Source: Pseudomonas sp. JAI120 (GTDB lineage: Bacteria; Pseudomonadota; Gammaproteobacteria; Pseudomonadales; Pseudomonadaceae). Taken from it: a DNA stretch of 64,000 bases. The translations under genes and the position numbers were made by a program. The notes under the pieces are model-generated. The model ran no database searches. It was given only the letters and a program-made list of their open reading frames with translations, and was not told the DNA's origin. Numbering within the stretch: the first letter of the stretch is position 1; each line of letters starts with the position of its first letter. This document shows positions 4,033 to 64,000 of the stretch, in pieces. The DNA is taken from positions 1,293,378 through 1,357,377 of the forward strand of contig NZ_JACHCZ010000001.1 of the NCBI RefSeq assembly GCF_014207255.1. Direction: 5' to 3'.

Positions 4033-5277
4033 TTAATCCACCTTGCTCAGACGGGTCAGCCACTCGCGGCCCTTGAGCATGCCGTTCCAGTAGAACCACG
4101 GCAGCCAGGTCGCCTTGAGAAACCACATCGAACGGCGCGCCCGGGTCGGGTCGAGGGGAAAGGTCGGCAGCAACTTGCCGCCGTAGCCGAACTCGGCCAA
4201 TACCACCTTGCCCTTCTCCACCGTCAGCGGGCACGAGCCATAGCCGTCGTACTTGAGCGGCAGCGGCGCCTGTCTGCGCAGGGCCAGCAGGTTTTCGGCG
4301 ACCACCACGATTTGCTTGCGCACGGCGGCGGCGGTCTTGGCGTTGCTGGTGCCGCACACATCGCCCAGGCCGAATATCTGCGGATAGCGCAGGTGCTGCA
4401 GGCTGTGGGGGTTCACCTCGCACCAGCCGGCAGCGTCGGCCAGCGGGCTTTGGCGGATAAACTCCGGGGCAACTTGCGGCGGCACCACGTGCAGCAGGTC
4501 GAAGGATTTTTCCTCGAGCGTGACGTTGCCCTCGGCATCCTTCACCTCGAACCAGGCCTTGCGCGCCGGGCCGTCGACCTTGACCAGGTTGGCGTTGAAC
4601 GCCAGGCGCGCGTTGTATTTCTCCACGTATTTCATCAACGGCGGCACAAAGGTCGCCACGCCGAACAGCGCCGCGCCGGCCAGGTTGAACTCGACGTCGA
4701 TGTGTTTAAGGTCGCCCTGCCTGAGCCAGTGATCGCAGGACAGGTACATGGCCTTTTGCGGCGCACCCGCGCATTTGATCGGCATGGCCGGCTGGGTAAA
4801 GATCGCCTTGCCGCCCTTGAGTTGCTGCACCAGTTGCCAGGTGTAGGCGGCGCTTTCGTAGCTGTAATTGGAGGTGACGCCGTGCTGGCCAAGGGTCTCT
4901 TCCAGGCCTTCGACCTTCTCCCAGGCAAGGCGCTGGCCCGGGCAGACGATCAGGTTGTTCCAGCTGACGCGCTGGCCGCTGTCGAGCACCAGGGTGCGCT
5001 CTTCCGGCAACAGTTCGGTGACGGCGGCCTGCACCCAGGTGACGCCATTGGGCAGCACATCGGCCAGGGGGCGTCGGGTCTTTTTCAGGTCGTAGGCACC
5101 GCCGCCGACCAGGGTCCAGGCCGGCTGGTAGCAGTGATGGTCGCTGGGTTCGATGAGGGTGATGTTCAGGTCGGGGTCGCGCTTGAGCAGGCTGGCCAGC
5201 AGGCCGATGCCTGCCGAACCGCCGCCGATGACGACGATATCGCCACTGATGGTTGGCCCCCAGTGTTGGTCGGTCAT
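4033..5277 (-). CDS. sqr: Sulfide:quinone oxidoreductase, human SQOR-like
   Basis: A 414-residue FAD flavoprotein. The N-terminal dinucleotide fold carries [11 protein letters not shown] (residues 15-25). Both redox cysteines of the eukaryote-like SQOR class can be placed: C169 in [10 protein letters not shown] and C349 in YGSCPLTV. The [15 protein letters not shown] segment near 305-320 is the family's second FAD site. These enzymes oxidise sulfide to a persulfide and pass electrons to the quinone pool at the inner membrane. The gene leads an operon with the TauE/SafE exporter and is divergent from the persulfide dioxygenase-like gene across a 169-base promoter region, giving a sulfide-detoxification module. 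No regulator of the BigR/SqrR or FisR type is adjacent. Confidence 0.88.
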
Positions 5278-5446
5278 GGTCTATTGCCTTTTATCGTCAA
5301 TGCACACAAGGGTCGCTGCCGTATGGCGTCACGCCCAGCGATGGGTCGATGCTTTGCCTCGAATCGTTTTTTTGCCTTAAGCTCGCAAGCCTATGTGGAA
5401 AACATCTCGAATGTAACCCGCAATTCGCTACCAAGGACCGCCGCCA

Positions 5447-6310
5447 ATGCCAGCGTTGATTCAAGCCTTTCTGGACGAGGCATCGTCGACCTACACCTAT
5501 GTCCTGCATGAGGGCGATGATGGCCCCTGCGCCATTGTCGACTCGGTGCTCAACTACGATCCGGCATCAGGGCGCACCGACACCCGTCAGGCGGACAAAG
5601 TGATTGCCTATGTGCGCGAACATCGTCTGCAAGTGCAATGGCTGCTGGAGACCCACGCCCATGCCGACCACCTGTCGGCAGCGCCGTACCTGCGCCGCAC
5701 CCTGGGCGGCAAGATCGCCATCGGCCAAAGCATCAGCAAGGTGCAGGACGTATTCAAGAATCTTTTCAACCTGGAGCCGGAATTTCGCGTCGATGGCTCG
5801 CAGTTCGACCACCTGTTTGCGCCGGATGAAATCTTCCACATCGGCACCATCAAGGCCCAGGCCCTGCACGTGCCGGGGCATACCCCGGCGGACATGGCCT
5901 ACTTGATCGACGACCGCCTCATCCTGGTCGGCGACACCCTGTTCATGCCCGATGTCGGCACCGCTCGCTGCGACTTCCCCGGCGGCGATGCGCGGCAGTT
6001 GTATGCGTCGATGCGCAAGCTCTTGGCCTTTGCCCCCGATACCCAACTGTACGTGTGCCACGACTACCCGCCCGAAGGTCGTGAGGCCAAATGCCTGACT
6101 ACGGTGGCCGAACAGCGGGAGGGAAATATCCATGTGCATGACGGGGTGGATGAAGCGACGTTCGTGGCGATGCGCACCCAACGCGATGCCGGGCTGGGGA
6201 TGCCCACGCTGTTGTTGCCGGCGATCCAGGTGAATGTGCGAGCGGGGAATATGCCGCCGGCGGAAGAGAATGGGGTTACTTACTTGAAGATACCCCTCAA
6301 CCAACTCTGA
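5447..6310 (+). CDS. Metallo-beta-lactamase-fold persulfide dioxygenase-like protein
   Basis: A 287-residue MBL-fold hydrolase of the ETHE1/Blh type. The metal motif THAHADH covers H70, H72, D74 and H75, with further ligands H145 (VPGHTPAD), D163 (VGDTLF) and H205 (CHDY). The segment GTARCDFPGGDARQLY is characteristic of persulfide dioxygenases, which oxidise glutathione persulfide to sulfite with one iron. It is transcribed away from the sulfide:quinone oxidoreductase, and the three genes together make a sulfide-to-sulfite route with an exporter. A glyoxalase II-like thiolesterase is the main alternative, but the context argues against it. Confidence 0.85.
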   Translation: MPALIQAFLDEASSTYTYVLHEGDDGPCAIVDSVLNYDPASGRTDTRQADKVIAYVREHRLQVQWLLETHAHADHLSAAPYLRRTLGGKIAIGQSISKVQDVFKNLFNLEPEFRVDGSQFDHLFAPDEIFHIGTIKAQALHVPGHTPADMAYLIDDRLILVGDTLFMPDVGTARCDFPGGDARQLYASMRKLLAFAPDTQLYVCHDYPPEGREAKCLTTVAEQREGNIHVHDGVDEATFVAMRTQRDAGLGMPTLLLPAIQVNVRAGNMPPAEENGVTYLKIPLNQL

Positions 6311-6320
6311 GATGCGGGAA

Positions 6321-6355
6321 CAATGTGGGAGGGGACCTGCCCCCTCCCACATTGG
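6321..6355. repeat. REP palindrome downstream of the MBL gene
   Basis: AATGTGGGAGGGG-ACCTG-CCCCTCCCACATT is an almost perfect inverted repeat of the GTGGGAGG REP family. It lies 11 bases after the stop of the MBL gene and before the convergent bkdR stop, where it could end transcription of both. Confidence 0.75.
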
Positions 6356-6367
6356 TAATCTGTTGCA

Positions 6368-6856
6368 TCAGCTACCGAGGCTGATGCCATTGGCAGGCAA
6401 CGGCAACGCTGTTTTGTAGCGCACTTGCTTGAGGGCAAAGCTGGAACGAATATTCGCCACCCCCGGCACCTTGGTCAAAAAGTCCATCATGAACCGCTCC
6501 AGCGACTGGATCGTCGGCACCAACACCCGGATCAAATAGTCCGGATCGCCAGCCATCAAATAGCACTCCATCACCTCGGGCCGGTCGGAAATCGCGCCTT
6601 CGAACTGCTGCAACGCCAACTCGTTCTGTTTTTCCAGGCTCACATGGATAAACACGTTGACGTGCAGCCCCAGCAAATCGGCGTCGAGCAGGGTGACCTG
6701 CTCGCGAATCAGGCCCAGTTCTTCCATCGCCTTGACCCGGTTGAAACAGGGTGTAGGCGACAGGTTGACCGAGCGGGCCAGGTCGGCGTTGGTGATCCGC
6801 GCATTCTCCTGAAGGGCGTTGAGAATGCCGATATCGGTACGGTCCAGTTTGCGCAT
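6368..6856 (-). CDS. bkdR: Lrp/AsnC-family activator BkdR of the bkd operon
   Basis: A 162-residue feast/famine regulator. An N-terminal winged helix-turn-helix (about residues 5-60, [20 protein letters not shown]) is followed by an AsnC ligand-binding/oligomerisation domain (about 70-145, [20 protein letters not shown]). It is divergent from bkdA1 across 195 bases. In P. putida BkdR activates the bkd operon in response to branched-chain amino acids and binds this kind of divergent region; the same arrangement supports the name. The start has a plausible site in the A-rich region before the ATG. Confidence 0.92.
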
Positions 6857-59722: not shown

Positions 59723-60976
59723 CTACCCGCTTTCGGTCAGATACCCCCCCTCGACCTCAAGTGCGCGAATCCTAAGGTAATCTGCGGCGATCACCTTAGG
59801 ATCGACATGAACCAGATACACCGTCCCCGGCTGACTGAACACGTCCTGCGTCGCACCCATTTGTTGTCCATTGTCGACGTAGAAAACTGCATCGAAGAAC
59901 GACTCAAGTTTGAGCAGCTCTTTCAAAAATAGATCCTTATCGAAACAGCCATTTGAACGGTTGATCAGGCAGACATTATAGGTATGTTGCAACAGTGGAT
60001 AGTCGGCCTCCCTTGCCAGCAATTGTGCAAAAAACTCCGGCTCGGCGATGGATAAAGCCACAGCTTCAATCTGCCCCAGACCGGTGGTTTGCCTGGATAC
60101 ACCGGGACGCAGAATACCGTCGGTTCGTGCAGCAACTTCTACCAGTTTCGGCCCCTCTGCGGTGAACATGACTTCTGCATGACTGGGGCCGTTGCGAATA
60201 CCCAGACACCGCACCACTGCCCGAGTGTAATCCACCAGCACCGGGTAAACCGATGAGTCAGGTCCGATCAACTCATCGATGTCATAGAGTACGCCGCCCT
60301 CTTTTGTGCGCTGTTTTTGGTACCTCACGACCTCGGTAACAAGCTGTTGACCATTGAGTGAAACCATATTCACCACATATTCCGTCCCCGCCAGGTACTC
60401 CTGAATCAGCACCTGCGTATTAGGTAGGTTCAACTTATTCGTTGCTCCCAACAGCTTGCCCACCGCAGTCTCGCAGGCCTGCCTATCCGCGCAGATGAAC
60501 ACACCATCGGCGCCTGCGCTGTCGAGGGGTTTTACCACGACAGGAAAGTGCCCATGGTCTTTGATCCAGCCGTCGGCTAACGCCCAACTGCCTGCAACGA
60601 ACTGTCGGGGTGCGGGCAACTGAGCCTGGGAAACACATTGAATCATGTCGTACTTGTTTCGGCGGGCATTGGTCCTGTCGAAGTCATTACGATAGGGCAG
60701 TTGCAGTCCTTCATTTAATAGGTCAGCCAGGAGCACACCGGTTTCGGCACCGGCGATGATGAAGTCAGGCTTGAAGCATTCGACGCCCGCCAAGGTAGTC
60801 GTCATATTGCTATTGACAGTCATCTGCTCATAAATCGAAGGATCGAAGCCCTTGTAGTAGTAACTCTCCAAGGCTCCCGTTGACGCCACATGCATGAGCA
60901 CACAACCCTTTTCACTCAACCGCTTCGCCACAAATTTTCCCGAAGAGAAACCATCAACCACGACCACTCTAATCAT
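59723..60976 (-). CDS. ATP-grasp ligase, candidate amino-acid ligase
   Basis: A 417-residue ATP-grasp protein. The N-terminal domain begins MIRVVVVDGFSSGKFVAKRL. The ATP-grasp core has FPVVVKPLDSAGADGVFIC near 148-166, QEYLAGTEYVVNMVS near 195-209, and the metal-binding PKLVEVAARTDG near 283. This resembles BacD-type and carnosine-synthase-type ligases that join two amino acids. It overlaps the exporter gene by four bases (ATGA) and is last in the low-GC operon. A biosynthetic ligase for a dipeptide or amide is the likely reading; substrates are unknown. Confidence 0.82.
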   Translation of the reverse strand: MIRVVVVDGFSSGKFVAKRLSEKGCVLMHVASTGALESYYYKGFDPSIYEQMTVNSNMTTTLAGVECFKPDFIIAGAETGVLLADLLNEGLQLPYRNDFDRTNARRNKYDMIQCVSQAQLPAPRQFVAGSWALADGWIKDHGHFPVVVKPLDSAGADGVFICADRQACETAVGKLLGATNKLNLPNTQVLIQEYLAGTEYVVNMVSLNGQQLVTEVVRYQKQRTKEGGVLYDIDELIGPDSSVYPVLVDYTRAVVRCLGIRNGPSHAEVMFTAEGPKLVEVAARTDGILRPGVSRQTTGLGQIEAVALSIAEPEFFAQLLAREADYPLLQHTYNVCLINRSNGCFDKDLFLKELLKLESFFDAVFYVDNGQQMGATQDVFSQPGTVYLVHVDPKVIAADYLRIRALEVEGGYLTESG

Positions 60977-61893
60977 GTTGCCTCCTTCCTGATTGCATAC
61001 ATCGCCCGACCCGAAAGCAACAACACAATGACGCTGACCGCCACCACACTGGTCATGGAAAACTCCACTCTGGTATCCAGATATTGGAGTAACAGTACAA
61101 AGACAGGAAGTGTCAGCAAAACCAGGGAGACATGGATGGGTGTGAGGTAGTAGATGGTTTTCTGAATCAGGTAAATCGGCAACAAATGCCCGATCACAAC
61201 CAGAACCACCATCGGCAGAATCAATTCGCGGTCGAGCGAAAAACTCACCTCGGAAGCAGGAATTGCGATGACGCAGACACCAATCATCGCCACGCTCCTG
61301 ACAGCCAGTATTTCATGGACAGACCAATGGCGAGCGAACATCTCCTTGGAGAAAACCGTGTAAATGACGGTACCCAACGCGCAAACCATGACGCTGCCAA
61401 TACCCAACAGTCGCTCCTCCACGGTAGTAGCGACCACACCGCTGTCACCGGCAAATGAATTGAACAACATGATCCCTACCGACGTGAGCACCAGACATGA
61501 AACCAGCGTATCTGCGAAGGCAGCCTTAGCACCGCGTTTAGTCAGCAGCGAGATAATCAACGTGAAGGCAGGGCCGCAGGCTACTGAGGCGACTCCGACC
61601 ACTGCTGGCTCTAAATAACGCAACGCGTAAAACAGGCCTCCCCAGTTGAGTAGAACTGCAATATTGACGATAAAGACAAACGGCCAACAGGATCTAAACT
61701 TTGAAACCAAAGAACCTGCATCGCGATACAGTGCGCACACGATAAAAAACACTGCCGACGTTACAAAACAATAAAAAACAACGATCAGTGTATTGATCGA
61801 TTGCGTGACATAAGCGACATACACATCGAATGCTGCACTGAGCAAGCAAAACACCAAGCCAATTATTACGCCCACCCTAAGCATATCTATCAA
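60973..61893 (-). CDS. DMT-superfamily (EamA-like) exporter
   Basis: A 306-residue inner-membrane protein with about ten hydrophobic helices in two EamA-like halves. The N-terminal half starts MIDMLRVGVIIGLVFCLLSA. The second half has LVVIGHLLPIYLIQKTIYYL. No signal peptide. Family members export amino acids and small metabolites. Its position between a phosphoribosyltransferase and an ATP-grasp ligase, overlapping the ligase gene by four bases, suggests it exports the product of this operon. Confidence 0.78.
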   Translation of the reverse strand: MIDMLRVGVIIGLVFCLLSAAFDVYVAYVTQSINTLIVVFYCFVTSAVFFIVCALYRDAGSLVSKFRSCWPFVFIVNIAVLLNWGGLFYALRYLEPAVVGVASVACGPAFTLIISLLTKRGAKAAFADTLVSCLVLTSVGIMLFNSFAGDSGVVATTVEERLLGIGSVMVCALGTVIYTVFSKEMFARHWSVHEILAVRSVAMIGVCVIAIPASEVSFSLDRELILPMVVLVVIGHLLPIYLIQKTIYYLTPIHVSLVLLTLPVFVLLLQYLDTRVEFSMTSVVAVSVIVLLLSGRAMYAIRKEAT

Positions 61894-61912
61894 CCGAAAA
61901 AAAAATACCGAC

Positions 61913-62479
61913 CTATGAAATCACGTTCACACCTTCGTCTCTAACCACTATTTTCATAATGGTTTTCACATCAATACCTGTTTGTTTTTTAACCTTTTCA
62001 GCGCCATTATTCCCCACCTTTTCAACGGCACAAATAACGTCCACTAATTCGCCACCAGCACCTTTCACTGCATTGACCAGCGCAATCACTGCACCACCAG
62101 TACTCAACGTATCATCAATAAGAGTTACGCGATCACCAGCATTAACGCCATTAAGATACATACTTCCTTGAAAATATTCTGACTGCACATTAACCACCTG
62201 CTCATTGATACCCCCCAGACTGTAGGAATACCATCTCGCCATTGCCATAGGAATACCTGTAAGCAAAGAGACCGTCGTAGCAAGCGCAGCACCTTTATCT
62301 TCTTCAGTTACAATTTTTGAAACATTAAAATCCATGAGCCTAACGATTTTTTGAGCCACCTCCATTAATACCTCCGGCCTTAATGCCGGAATTTGATCAG
62401 TAAACTCGTTTACGGTAGTCAATGCTGCACCAGAGTTCACAACTCTGGCATTCCTATAAACCTCTTCAAGTAACATCAT
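61913..62479 (-). CDS. Phosphoribosyltransferase-family protein
   Basis: A 188-residue type I phosphoribosyltransferase. The PRPP-binding motif is VTLIDDTLSTGGAVIAL near 118-134. The N-terminal flexible-loop region has IVTEEDKGAALATTVSLL. It resembles adenine/purine phosphoribosyltransferases. It overlaps the PLP-enzyme gene by 14 bases. The region is AT-rich by eye compared with the flanks. It may handle a nucleobase precursor or have a regulatory role; neither is shown. Confidence 0.8.
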   Translation of the reverse strand: MMLLEEVYRNARVVNSGAALTTVNEFTDQIPALRPEVLMEVAQKIVRLMDFNVSKIVTEEDKGAALATTVSLLTGIPMAMARWYSYSLGGINEQVVNVQSEYFQGSMYLNGVNAGDRVTLIDDTLSTGGAVIALVNAVKGAGGELVDVICAVEKVGNNGAEKVKKQTGIDVKTIMKIVVRDEGVNVIS

Positions 62480-63425
62480 TCACCTCACTGTATTCTGGAT
62501 AAACACCATCCCAGCGACTTGCGTACTTCCATGAACTATCAAAAAACAAGGTGACTATATTTTTTTTGTGGAATGTTCGTGCAAACTCATCGCAGACCAG
62601 CAAGTTCGCACCACAGGTCGGGCCAATTGGGATTTTTTCTTCGTCAATAAAGAGCCTCATTCGAGCCCATGCGTCTGAGCCTTCAATCACTCGGACCTCA
62701 TCAACGAGTTCAGAGATTGTATTAGCTGACAAGACTCCGGCACCGAGCCCCATTAAATTATGAGGGCGATGTTCAAAAGCCAAGTGATGCCTTTCTGCAA
62801 ACAATGGAGCAGAATAATTGACTTCAAGCCCTACGGTTCTAATTTCGCTGTACTCTCGCTTCAAGACCTCAGCAATACCAGAAAACGTTCCACCCGTGCC
62901 TATCGAGCAAACAAAAAAATCAGGTACTACGCCATGCACCTTCAGGTCCCGTACTATTTCTTCACCACAGACCTTCCAACTTTGCCTGTTCAATAAATTG
63001 CTGGACTGATCCAGAAAATAACTTTCTCTCGCCGAGTTCTCCGCTTGATAACGTTTGGCTCGGAGTACGGCTTCTGATAAAAAACCTTCTCTTGGCGTTT
63101 CAACTATTTCAGCCCCATAAGAGCGTATTTGAGCTTTCCGTTCCTCAGTCATACCTTCTGGCATAAAGATTTTAACCTTATAGCCTTTTAGCCTTCCGAT
63201 CCACGCAAGTGCTGCTCCACCATTCCCGGTAGAACAATCTATCAAGGTCATGCCCGGCCAAATGACGCCGGCCTCTTCCAATCGGCTAACAATATTTAGA
63301 TAAGTCCTGTCCTTGTGACTTCCTGAGGGATTCAAAAACTCACACTTAGAAAAAACCTTGTTGCCATTTATCGAGAGTGTTTTCAACTCTATAAGTGGCG
63401 TACCACCAATATCTGCGAGCTCCAT
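62466..63425 (-). CDS. Fold-type II PLP enzyme, cysteine-synthase-like
   Basis: A 319-residue PLP enzyme of the cysteine synthase/cystathionine beta-synthase group. The aldimine lysine is in FLNPSGSHKDRTYLNIV near 33-49, the substrate loop is STGNGGAALAW, and the phosphate loop is GTGGTFSGIAE near 179. Such enzymes replace the beta substituent of O-acetylserine, O-phosphoserine or serine. The ATG at 63425 with a TAGGGGG site is preferred; an ATG 24 bases upstream lacks a site. First gene of the operon, so it probably makes an unusual amino acid used by the ligase. Confidence 0.82.
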   Translation of the reverse strand: MELADIGGTPLIELKTLSINGNKVFSKCEFLNPSGSHKDRTYLNIVSRLEEAGVIWPGMTLIDCSTGNGGAALAWIGRLKGYKVKIFMPEGMTEERKAQIRSYGAEIVETPREGFLSEAVLRAKRYQAENSARESYFLDQSSNLLNRQSWKVCGEEIVRDLKVHGVVPDFFVCSIGTGGTFSGIAEVLKREYSEIRTVGLEVNYSAPLFAERHHLAFEHRPHNLMGLGAGVLSANTISELVDEVRVIEGSDAWARMRLFIDEEKIPIGPTCGANLLVCDEFARTFHKKNIVTLFFDSSWKYASRWDGVYPEYSEVNDVT

Positions 63426-63490
63426 TCTGAAGCCCCCTATCCTCGACATAGAATACTTGAACGCTAACAGATTACTTCACAGACAAATAG

Positions 63491-63809
63491 CTAGCCGAAC
63501 GGATAGGTAGTTTCAAGTTCGAAGTAGCGACCTGAGTGTAGGATTTTCCTGCAAACAATCCCTGCAAGAACTAGGATGCTGTCGACCCTTTGCCCACGGT
63601 ACGTGCGACGCCCACGCCCCGCCGCCGACAGCCCGGCGATCAGGGTCATTGCGCACATCAACGGCAGTACCACATACCAGTAGGCGAACTCGAACACCCA
63701 TCCCAGCAGGTAACCGATGACCAACAGTTGCACCGCGGTGCGCACCGTTGACCAGGATCAGCGAAGCGGCGATGCCCATGTCCAGGGCGGTGAGGTTCTG
63801 ATAGTTCAC
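63491..63809 (-). pseudogene. Truncated and frameshifted fetB (YbbM) remnant
   Basis: The GTG at 63809 starts NYQNLTALDMGIAASLILVNG, the start of a FetB/YbbM permease. The frame then breaks and resumes as VRTAVQLLVIGYLLGWVF, leaving out about 20 residues. The match runs out near 63560 after GRRTYRGQRVDSI; relatives continue for over 150 residues. The low-GC operon begins right after this point. Confidence 0.72.
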
Positions 63810-64000
63810 GGCTGGGCCGCCTCGCTCAACACCCCGGCACTCATCTGCCAGTGGATGTCGCTCATGCGCCGGGCCTGGTCGAGGTCGTGGGGTCGAGGGC
63901 GGTGGTGGGTTCGTCCAGCAGCACCTCGGGGTTGAGTTGCAGGGTGCGGATCAGCGAGACCACCTAGGCCTCGCCACCCGACAGGTCCAACGCGTTCTTC
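63806..64000 (-). pseudogene. Decayed fetA (YbbL) ATPase remnant, cut by the window edge
   Basis: On the minus strand the signature LSGGEA is followed by a stop codon (TAG at 63964-63966) where relatives have Gln, then VSLIRTLQLNPEVLLDEPTT, which is the Walker B region. After ALDP the frame shifts and the C-terminal HDLDQARRMSDIHWQMSAG follows with about 50 residues missing between. It shares GTGA with fetB. Several lesions show a dead gene. Confidence 0.72.

What the first reader, a model, noticed from the sequence alone, without database searches (positions are those of the whole stretch)
59723..63449. Low-GC four-gene operon: PLP enzyme, phosphoribosyltransferase, DMT exporter, ATP-grasp ligase
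Seen: four genes on one strand joined by overlaps of 14 and 4 bases, with visibly higher AT content (about 40% GC by eye in the PRTase gene) than the GC-rich surroundings. Known: CysK-like enzymes form beta-substituted alanines, ATP-grasp ligases join amino acids, EamA proteins export metabolites. Inference: a small acquired pathway that makes an unusual amino acid, ligates it and exports it. The phosphoribosyltransferase could point to a nucleobase-bearing amino acid such as a willardiine- or lupinic-acid-like compound. I know of no described cluster with this set.
Basis: partly seen in the sequence, partly recalled or inferred. Interest (0 to 1): 0.85.

Follow-up and report, generated by a model that had tools for sequence, protein, structure and literature searches.

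The report
Mobile operon for an exported dipeptide
A compact four-gene unit, found in a Pseudomonas and in scattered Photorhabdus and Yersinia genomes, probably makes and pumps out a small unusual amino-acid or dipeptide compound whose identity is unknown.

Summary
Four minus-strand genes (PLP enzyme, phosphoribosyltransferase, EamA exporter, ATP-grasp ligase) overlap by 14 and 4 bases and have 42-53% GC beside genes of 62-67%. Every locus found with a close PRTase (at least 59% identical) has all four in the same order: 18 of 18 (10 Pseudomonas, 5 Photorhabdus, 3 Yersinia). The operon is rare (5 of 398 sampled same-genus genomes, the window's own included), lies in different chromosomal sites and is under purifying selection. 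The ligase is an L-amino-acid-ligase/DdaF relative. In 4 of 5 Photorhabdus loci a second operon copy has decayed except for an intact exporter under purifying selection, which points to a product worth exporting for self-protection. Best reading: the PLP enzyme and PRTase make a beta-substituted alanine connected with a base-like heterocycle, the ligase makes a dipeptide, EamA exports it. Export and dipeptide are moderately supported; the nucleobase link is weak. Ten open-access literature searches found no description.

The parts
62466..63449 (-). PLP enzyme (fold type II, CysK-like); start probably at 63425, 319 aa
   Evidence: PALP 5.6e-66; TIGR01136 204.5 bits vs cut-off 344.15; best fold match S. 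aureus CysK
61913..62479 (-). phosphoribosyltransferase, APRT/HPT/Xpt type, 188 aa
   Evidence: NF009211 263.8 bits vs cut-off 188; B. subtilis xanthine PRTase is best fold match; PRPP motif conserved
60973..61893 (-). EamA/DMT-family exporter; start probably ATG at 61884, 303 aa
   Evidence: EamA 1.2e-13, 51.9 bits vs 28.2; hydrophobic segments along the whole chain
59723..60976 (-). ATP-grasp ligase, L-amino-acid ligase / DdaF relative, 417 aa
   Evidence: NF005543 480 bits vs cut-off 302, DdaF model 217.7 bits vs cut-off 840; PDB 30vh L-amino acid ligase E 6.6e-58
63486..63510 (-). conserved upstream element with a 16-bp imperfect palindrome (63491-63506); candidate operator or leader
   Evidence: present in 6 of 10 Pseudomonas loci; 2 hits in 298 same-genus genomes, both at the operon
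63573..64000 (.). remnants of fetAB-like genes (ABC ATPase and UPF0014), broken here, beside the operon; they run on to about 64140 outside the window
   Evidence: blastn of the extended window to L003 and L039; Pfam ABC_tran and UPF0014 on the open genes of L003; open genes in L039 by eye

Best explanation
A self-contained, horizontally moving pathway that makes and exports a small amino-acid-derived compound, most likely a dipeptide-like antimetabolite. Proposed steps: (1) the CysK-like enzyme eliminates an activated serine (O-acetyl- or O-phosphoserine) to aminoacrylate and adds a nucleophile, giving a beta-substituted alanine (inferred from fold and retained PLP motifs). (2) The phosphoribosyltransferase transfers phosphoribose from PRPP to, or otherwise handles, the base-like heterocycle of the same molecule or of its precursor (inferred, weakest step). 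(3) The ATP-grasp ligase joins the product to a second amino acid (inferred from family). (4) The EamA protein exports the product, which also protects the producer (inferred; the stand-alone retention of this gene in Photorhabdus is the main evidence). Shown here: unit, order, rarity, changing sites, selection, non-housekeeping PLP enzyme. Not shown: any reaction or product.
For: Same four-gene order in 18 of 18 loci with a close PRTase, from three genera. Rare and scattered: 6 of 398 same-genus genomes hit by the PRT profile at E<=1e-40, 5 of them operon-bearing including the window's own, the sixth a distant relative without the set; own genome only in 398 of the phylum and, with the PLP profile, in 369 of the class; 3 of 25 genomes of the Yersinia genus. 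Different flanks in different lineages. Y. similis genes are nearer Photorhabdus (PLP 0.70, PRT 0.74) than the two other Yersinia (0.60-0.63). dN/dS 0.07-0.29. PLP enzyme at 204 bits, below the cysKM cut-off of 344, while two other genes of the genome reach 425 and 409 bits. Exporter: in L006, L007, L008, L010 a second operon copy is reduced to fragments but its exporter is open over 306 aa, with dN/dS 0.08-0.24 among species. Closest ligase families are amino-acid ligases. EamA-like proteins (23-26% identical to the window's) lie next to relatives of the ligase in Tistrella L022 and Y. frederiksenii L023.
Against: No substrate or product evidence. EamA proteins can have other cargo. The PRTase could be salvage or regulatory. 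dpp beside the operon in Photorhabdus and P. karstica could be coincidence. No dedicated regulator or larger biosynthetic set was seen to travel with it. In one locus (L025) the PLP gene is split between two frames, so there it is decayed or misread. One of 17 readable PLP sequences (L064) has Gly where 16 have Cys in the GPTCGAN motif. The loci were found through the PRTase, so lone PLP, exporter or ligase genes of these clades are under-sampled.
Confidence: 0.55

Rival explanations
1. One reading: the nucleophile of the PLP enzyme is a free nucleobase or close analogue, giving a willardiine- or lupinic-acid-like amino acid, and the PRTase supplies, recycles or ribosylates that base.
For: PRTase is of the purine-base type by family and fold; PLP and PRT genes are adjacent and have the best-correlated distances of the six gene pairs (Spearman 0.76 with all 18 loci, 0.82 without L025); an NCS1 nucleobase/allantoin-type permease lies upstream in L011, with cluster members in L013 and L025.
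Against: That permease lies about 1.7-2.6 kb upstream, in 3 of 18 loci only, all of one Pseudomonas group; APRT-type equilibria favour nucleotide formation (recalled), so release of base by reversal is unlikely; the exporter-ligase pair correlates almost as well (0.74); adjacent genes share history, so the correlation is weak evidence.
Confidence: 0.2
2. The PRTase is not in the product pathway: it is a PRPP-sensing regulator (PyrR/PurR-like) or a salvage or self-protection enzyme; the other three genes make and export a simple beta-substituted alanine dipeptide.
For: PRTase folds include regulators (PurR of B. subtilis is in the fold list); a conserved operon-specific upstream element exists in six Pseudomonas loci.
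Against: No DNA-binding domain seen (188 aa, one Pfam domain); PRPP loop kept in all 18 (14 identical, 4 with close variants); present also in loci without the element; second in order, not first.
Confidence: 0.2
3. A metallophore-like system (as for opine metallophores with an EamA exporter, recalled): ligand exported by EamA and reimported by an ABC system.
For: Y. similis locus is followed by a siderophore-type binding-protein/FecCD/ATPase set; dipeptide ABC genes neighbour the operon in 5 of 5 Photorhabdus loci and in P. karstica (clustering; L006 and the L005 binding protein typed).
Against: The siderophore-type set was seen in 1 of 18 loci; the L006 dpp genes exceed the DppA, DppB, DppC and dipeptide-ATPase cut-offs, so they look like the ordinary dipeptide importer (the other four Photorhabdus loci were not typed).
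Confidence: 0.07
4. An accessory primary-metabolism module (cysteine or nitrogen recycling) with no specialised product.
For: All four families have members in primary metabolism.
Against: Rare and in changing sites, low GC, host has two genes over the CysK/CysM cut-off; ligase belongs with amino-acid ligases; dedicated exporter.
Confidence: 0.08

Closest known systems
Dapdiamide pathway ligase DdaF (Pantoea), an ATP-grasp peptide ligase working on diaminopropionate made by a CysK-like enzyme (pathway recalled)
   Same: The ligase matches the DdaF model over its whole length (217.7 bits); logic of CysK-like PLP enzyme plus ATP-grasp ligase
   Different: Far below the DdaF cut-off of 840; no PRTase in that pathway (recalled)
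D-cycloserine pathway (CysK-like DcsD, ATP-grasp DcsG, membrane exporter DcsJ; all recalled)
   Same: Same architectural logic: beta-replacement PLP enzyme, ATP-grasp ligase, membrane exporter
   Different: No racemase, arginase-like or oxygenase gene here; extra PRTase; not compared by sequence
gvg / PNP-1 cluster for 4-formylaminooxyvinylglycine in Pseudomonas and Pantoea (PMC8064604, PMC4010436; passages seen)
   Same: Non-proteinogenic amino acid cluster scattered by horizontal transfer
   Different: Different genes (carbamoyltransferase, formyltransferase, aminotransferase, LysE or MFS transporter). 'cysteine synthase' occurs in neither text; 'phosphoribosyl' only as purL in PMC4010436; a related cluster of P. 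agglomerans Eh318 does hold an ATP-grasp gene
NCBIfam NF009211 (adenine phosphoribosyltransferase, PRK12560)
   Same: The six operon PRTases scored reach 257-325 bits, over the cut-off of 188
   Different: I know of no test behind the name; sub-cut-off hits in the Yersinia genomes score 129-142, the one opened (L059) being Apt by eye; 10 of 14 control genomes ring, none over the cut-off; non-operon relatives 138-163
PDB 30vh/30vq L-amino acid ligase
   Same: Full-length match, E 6.6e-58
   Different: Its substrates and source are unknown to me; the sequences are clearly diverged

Membership tests
Cysteine synthase (CysK/CysM) | scores over NCBIfam cysKM cut-off 344.15 bits | tested here: not met
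   204.5 bits, 204.3 in the genome search; two other genes of this genome at 425 and 409.4
Cysteine synthase (CysK/CysM) | fold type II PLP fold with catalytic Lys, Asn loop, GTGGT phosphate loop | tested here: met
   Model (mean pLDDT 79.5) best matches S. aureus CysK, TM 0.81-0.83; GSHKDR, STGNGG and GTGGT in 18 of 18; roles of residues recalled
Cysteine synthase (CysK/CysM) | forms cysteine from O-acetylserine and sulfide | not testable with these tools
   needs enzyme assay
NF009211 phosphoribosyltransferase | score over cut-off 188 bits | tested here: met
   263.8 bits
Adenine phosphoribosyltransferase (TIGR01090 apt) | score over cut-off 185.85 bits | tested here: not met
   41.5 bits
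Archaeal hypoxanthine/guanine PRTase (NF040646) | score over cut-off 200 bits | tested here: not met
   150.1 bits
Class I phosphoribosyltransferases | PRPP-binding loop | tested here: met
   IDDTLSTGG in 14 of 18, close variants in the other 4
Dapdiamide A synthase DdaF | score over cut-off 840 bits | tested here: not met
   217.7 bits
ATP-grasp L-amino acid ligases | ATP-grasp domain and full-length similarity to a solved L-amino acid ligase | tested here: met
   ATP-grasp_4 46.7 bits vs 27; 30vh residues 9-410
ATP-grasp L-amino acid ligases | ligates two unprotected amino acids with ATP | not testable with these tools
   needs assay
EamA/DMT exporters | EamA domain over gathering score | tested here: met
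   51.9 bits vs 28.2
gvg (FVG) clusters | formyltransferase and carbamoyltransferase genes | tested here: not met
   Neither is among the four genes; definition from passages of PMC8064604

The most novel reading that the evidence does not exclude
A minimal bacterial PRPP-using pathway to an exported peptide antimetabolite that carries a nucleobase-like beta-substituted alanine (or its ribotide), spread between pseudomonads and enterobacteria, with the exporter doubling as a self-resistance gene that is kept on its own when the pathway decays.
Probability: 0.2. Interest if true: 0.8.

Novelty: new variant of a known kind. Interest (0 to 1): 0.55.

Why it matters
Four genes in 3.7 kb are small enough to express and solve in a few experiments. 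If the product is a new exported antimetabolite, the operon adds a chemistry (PRTase with CysK-like and ATP-grasp enzymes) that cluster-finding rules built on NRPS and PKS genes would be expected to miss (not tested here), and the lone exporter in Photorhabdus would be a ready marker of self-resistance. NCBIfam would name the second gene 'adenine phosphoribosyltransferase', so the operon is easy to overlook.

Tried and rejected
Housekeeping cysteine synthase: rejected. Plasmids: the 13 PRT hits are all under 60% identity, and so are the ligase and PLP hits. I opened ten plasmid regions; none shows the set, by tblastn for L020-L023 and by annotation only for six more, which hold unnamed proteins. 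Phage records gave three weak PRT hits and no ligase hit. Of 58 viral-contig stretches with a pattern none encodes a relative. No E. coli DNA match. Haladaptatus plasmid with a PALP and an Hpt gene: 8 kb apart in a selenium/molybdenum cluster, taken as coincidence.

Known RNA element: the window's region has none. In one search other loci do have Rfam hits: TwoAYGGAY in L003 and in L013 (about 0.8 kb before its PLP gene) and C4 antisense RNA in L004 (about 0.3 kb before); not shared, not followed. The leader fold has one 6-pair helix without a two-sided change, so an RNA element is not favoured over an operator. Leader peptide ending TYPFG: by eye it fits five of six sequences, one has an in-frame stop, and I saw no common start; left open.

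Furanomycin: the passages of PMC3662646 that I saw name no such gene set. gvg/PNP-1: different genes. Literature: ten searches, seen as listings, gave no description of the set; only open-licence PMC papers are held.

Caveats on counts: the genome searches score only some first-look candidates per genome (8); the scan uses exact peptide patterns and so finds close relatives. In one search the script took the upstream exporter copy for L007; one search repeats order and correlations with the copy beside the ligase, and with and without L025, whose PLP gene is in two pieces. Spearman values come from non-independent pairs.
Full report
Observation. Four open reading frames lie on the minus strand at 62466-63449, 61913-62479, 60973-61893 and 59723-60976. 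The first two overlap by 14 bases, the last two by 4; the middle gap is 19 bases. Their GC content is 45, 42, 49 and 53%, against 62-67% for four neighbouring genes measured. Pfam gives PALP, Pribosyltran, EamA and ATP-grasp_4, each over its gathering score. Two starts are probably later than the ORF list gives: 63425 for the PLP enzyme (relatives start there) and 61884 for the exporter.

Is it a unit? A scan of genome contigs (one genome for each of 84,980 species) with the PRTase gave 50 pattern matches, of which 11 loci encode a relative; in all 11 the other three genes are beside it. Searching 398 same-genus genomes gave 6 hits: the window's own, four more with the set, and one distant relative (38%) without it. 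In the Yersinia genus 3 of 25 genomes have a PRTase over the family cut-off; one is the Y. similis genome already found, and the two others have the whole set. In sum 18 of 18 loci with a PRTase at least 59% identical to the window's have PLP, PRT, exporter and ligase in that order on one strand: 10 Pseudomonas (unnamed same-genus genomes counted as such), 5 Photorhabdus, 3 Yersinia. In 398 genomes drawn from the phylum the PRTase profile, and in 369 from the class the PLP profile, found only the window's own genome. So the set is rare and, where the PRTase is present, linked. Because the loci were found through the PRTase, lone copies of the other genes would have been missed.

Mobility. The flanks differ between lineages. 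Two Yersinia genomes carry it between genes that I recognise by eye as prkB and crp, Y. similis between hut genes and a siderophore-type ABC set, Photorhabdus next to dpp (clustering; L006 typed). In the window's genome, two relatives (L039, L040) match both sides of a variable block; in L039 the sequences at window 56818 and 63573 are separated by 3.3 kb of other genes. Broken fetAB-like remnants at about 63573-64140 lie at that border. The Y. similis PLP and PRT proteins are nearer Photorhabdus L006 (0.70, 0.74) than the two other Yersinia (0.60-0.63). The low GC is shared by the four relatives measured (PLP 0.435-0.446, PRT 0.415-0.443), so it is a property of the operon lineage.

Selection. 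Nei-Gojobori dN/dS against L003, L004 and L024 is 0.07-0.29 for all four genes; against L005 synonymous sites are saturated for three of four. One locus, L025, has its PLP gene split between two frames, by error or decay.

The PLP enzyme. It is fold type II and closest to cysteine synthases in sequence and fold (TM 0.81-0.83 to S. aureus CysK; model mean pLDDT 79.5), with GSHKDR, STGNGG and GTGGT in 18 of 18 sequences. It scores 204.5 bits against the cysKM model, cut-off 344. The genome has two genes over that cut-off, at 425 and 409 bits, and two below it at 300 and 294. So it is not the housekeeping enzyme. In the alignment printed the His before the catalytic Lys stands where CysK has Val, the Asn loop ends in Gly in place of Thr, and GPTCGAN stands where CysK has GISSGAA; 16 of 17 readable sequences have the Cys and L064 has Gly. 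What these changes do is not known.

The PRTase. It exceeds the NF009211 cut-off (263.8 vs 188) but not that of apt (41.5 vs 185.85) or archaeal Hpt (150.1 vs 200). The nearest fold is B. subtilis xanthine PRTase, then APRTs (model mean pLDDT 82.9). The PRPP loop is IDDTLSTGG in 14 of 18 with close variants in the other 4, and TEEDKGA is in 18 of 18. A catalytic PRTase acting on a base-like ring is the plain reading. More distant relatives (38-42%) sit elsewhere: in Rhizobium phaseoli (L021) and one same-genus genome (L028) with luciferase-like monooxygenase, isochorismatase, MFS and UbiD genes (typed in L028, same ORF clusters in L021), and in Haloferax (L020) among prenyltransferases.

The ligase and exporter. 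The ligase exceeds NF005543 (480 vs 302) and resembles DdaF (217.7 vs 840); the best solved relative is an L-amino acid ligase. EamA-like proteins lie beside relatives of the ligase in Tistrella and Y. frederiksenii, which suggests a reusable ligase-exporter pair; five other plasmid contexts that I opened show no annotated EamA neighbour. Pairwise identities correlate best for PLP-PRT (0.76) and exporter-ligase (0.74), and less for the four cross pairs (0.32-0.57); without L025 the values are 0.82, 0.78 and 0.37-0.57.

A lone exporter. In 4 of 5 Photorhabdus loci (L006, L007, L008, L010; none found in L009) a second copy lies upstream. It consists of a PLP piece in all four (68 or 30 residues), PRT and ligase pieces in L007 and L010, and an exporter open over all 306 residues, 88-92% identical to the first copy. 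Between species this exporter evolves with dN/dS 0.08-0.24, against 0.06-0.15 for the exporter of the full operon. The rest decayed while the exporter was kept. That is what one expects if export itself protects, from the strain's own product or a neighbour's.

Regulation. Six of ten Pseudomonas loci share an element around CTATCCGTTCGGCTAG, about 65 bases before the start in the window; four Pseudomonas loci and the six enterobacterial loci then held lack it. It occurs at only two places in 298 same-genus genomes, both at the operon; a third operon-bearing genome among them (G256) lacks it. It is a near-palindrome, which fits an operator. An RNA reading has one short helix without two-sided changes, and Rfam gives nothing there.

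How it most likely works. The PLP enzyme makes a beta-substituted alanine from an activated serine; the PRTase acts on a base-like ring belonging to the same molecule or its precursor; the ligase makes a dipeptide; EamA exports it. Unit, linkage, rarity, changing sites, selection and the non-housekeeping nature of the PLP enzyme are shown; every chemical step is inferred. I give 0.55 to an exported amino-acid or dipeptide product, and 0.2 to the nucleobase-bearing version.

Known or new. Ten full-text searches (listings seen) found no paper on this set. Passages seen in PMC3662646, PMC8064604 and PMC4010436 concern other gene sets. The logic is known (dapdiamide, D-cycloserine; recalled); the combination with a PRTase is not known to me: a new variant of a known kind.

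Noticed in passing
L006, L007, L008, L010, about 5200-6700: Decayed second copy of the operon in four of five Photorhabdus loci in which only the EamA exporter stays intact and under purifying selection.
   Followed up: yes
window 63486-63510: Operon-specific near-palindromic element upstream of the PLP gene, shared by six Pseudomonas loci; by eye it can also be read as the end of a short peptide TYPFG.
   Followed up: partly
window 63573-64000 (running on to about 64140 of the contig): Remnants of fetAB-like iron-export genes, open in relatives L003 and L039, broken here next to the operon.
   Followed up: partly
L021 2572-10583; L028 5361-12756: A different gene set shared by a Rhizobium plasmid and a same-genus genome, with a distant relative of this PRTase: luciferase-like monooxygenase, isochorismatase, PRTase, MFS, UbiD and, by eye, a HAD-like gene (a UbiX-like flavoprotein in L021); looks like another heterocycle pathway.
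   Followed up: partly
L023 7270-12961: Y. frederiksenii plasmid cluster with methyltransferase, ATP-grasp ligase, EamA-like protein (annotated hypothetical), diaminopimelate-decarboxylase-like and aminotransferase genes.
   Followed up: no
L006 3886-4662; L008 3899-4693: A cyclodipeptide synthase gene (Pfam CDPS in L006, same ORF cluster in L008) just upstream of the Photorhabdus operon copies.
   Followed up: no
L065 5775-6356: A fragment that by eye resembles an IS200/IS605 TnpB protein directly downstream of the Yersinia operon, a possible trace of its transfer.
   Followed up: no
L025 7942-8939: The PLP gene of this same-genus operon copy is split between two frames while the other three genes match over the length compared.
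   Followed up: no
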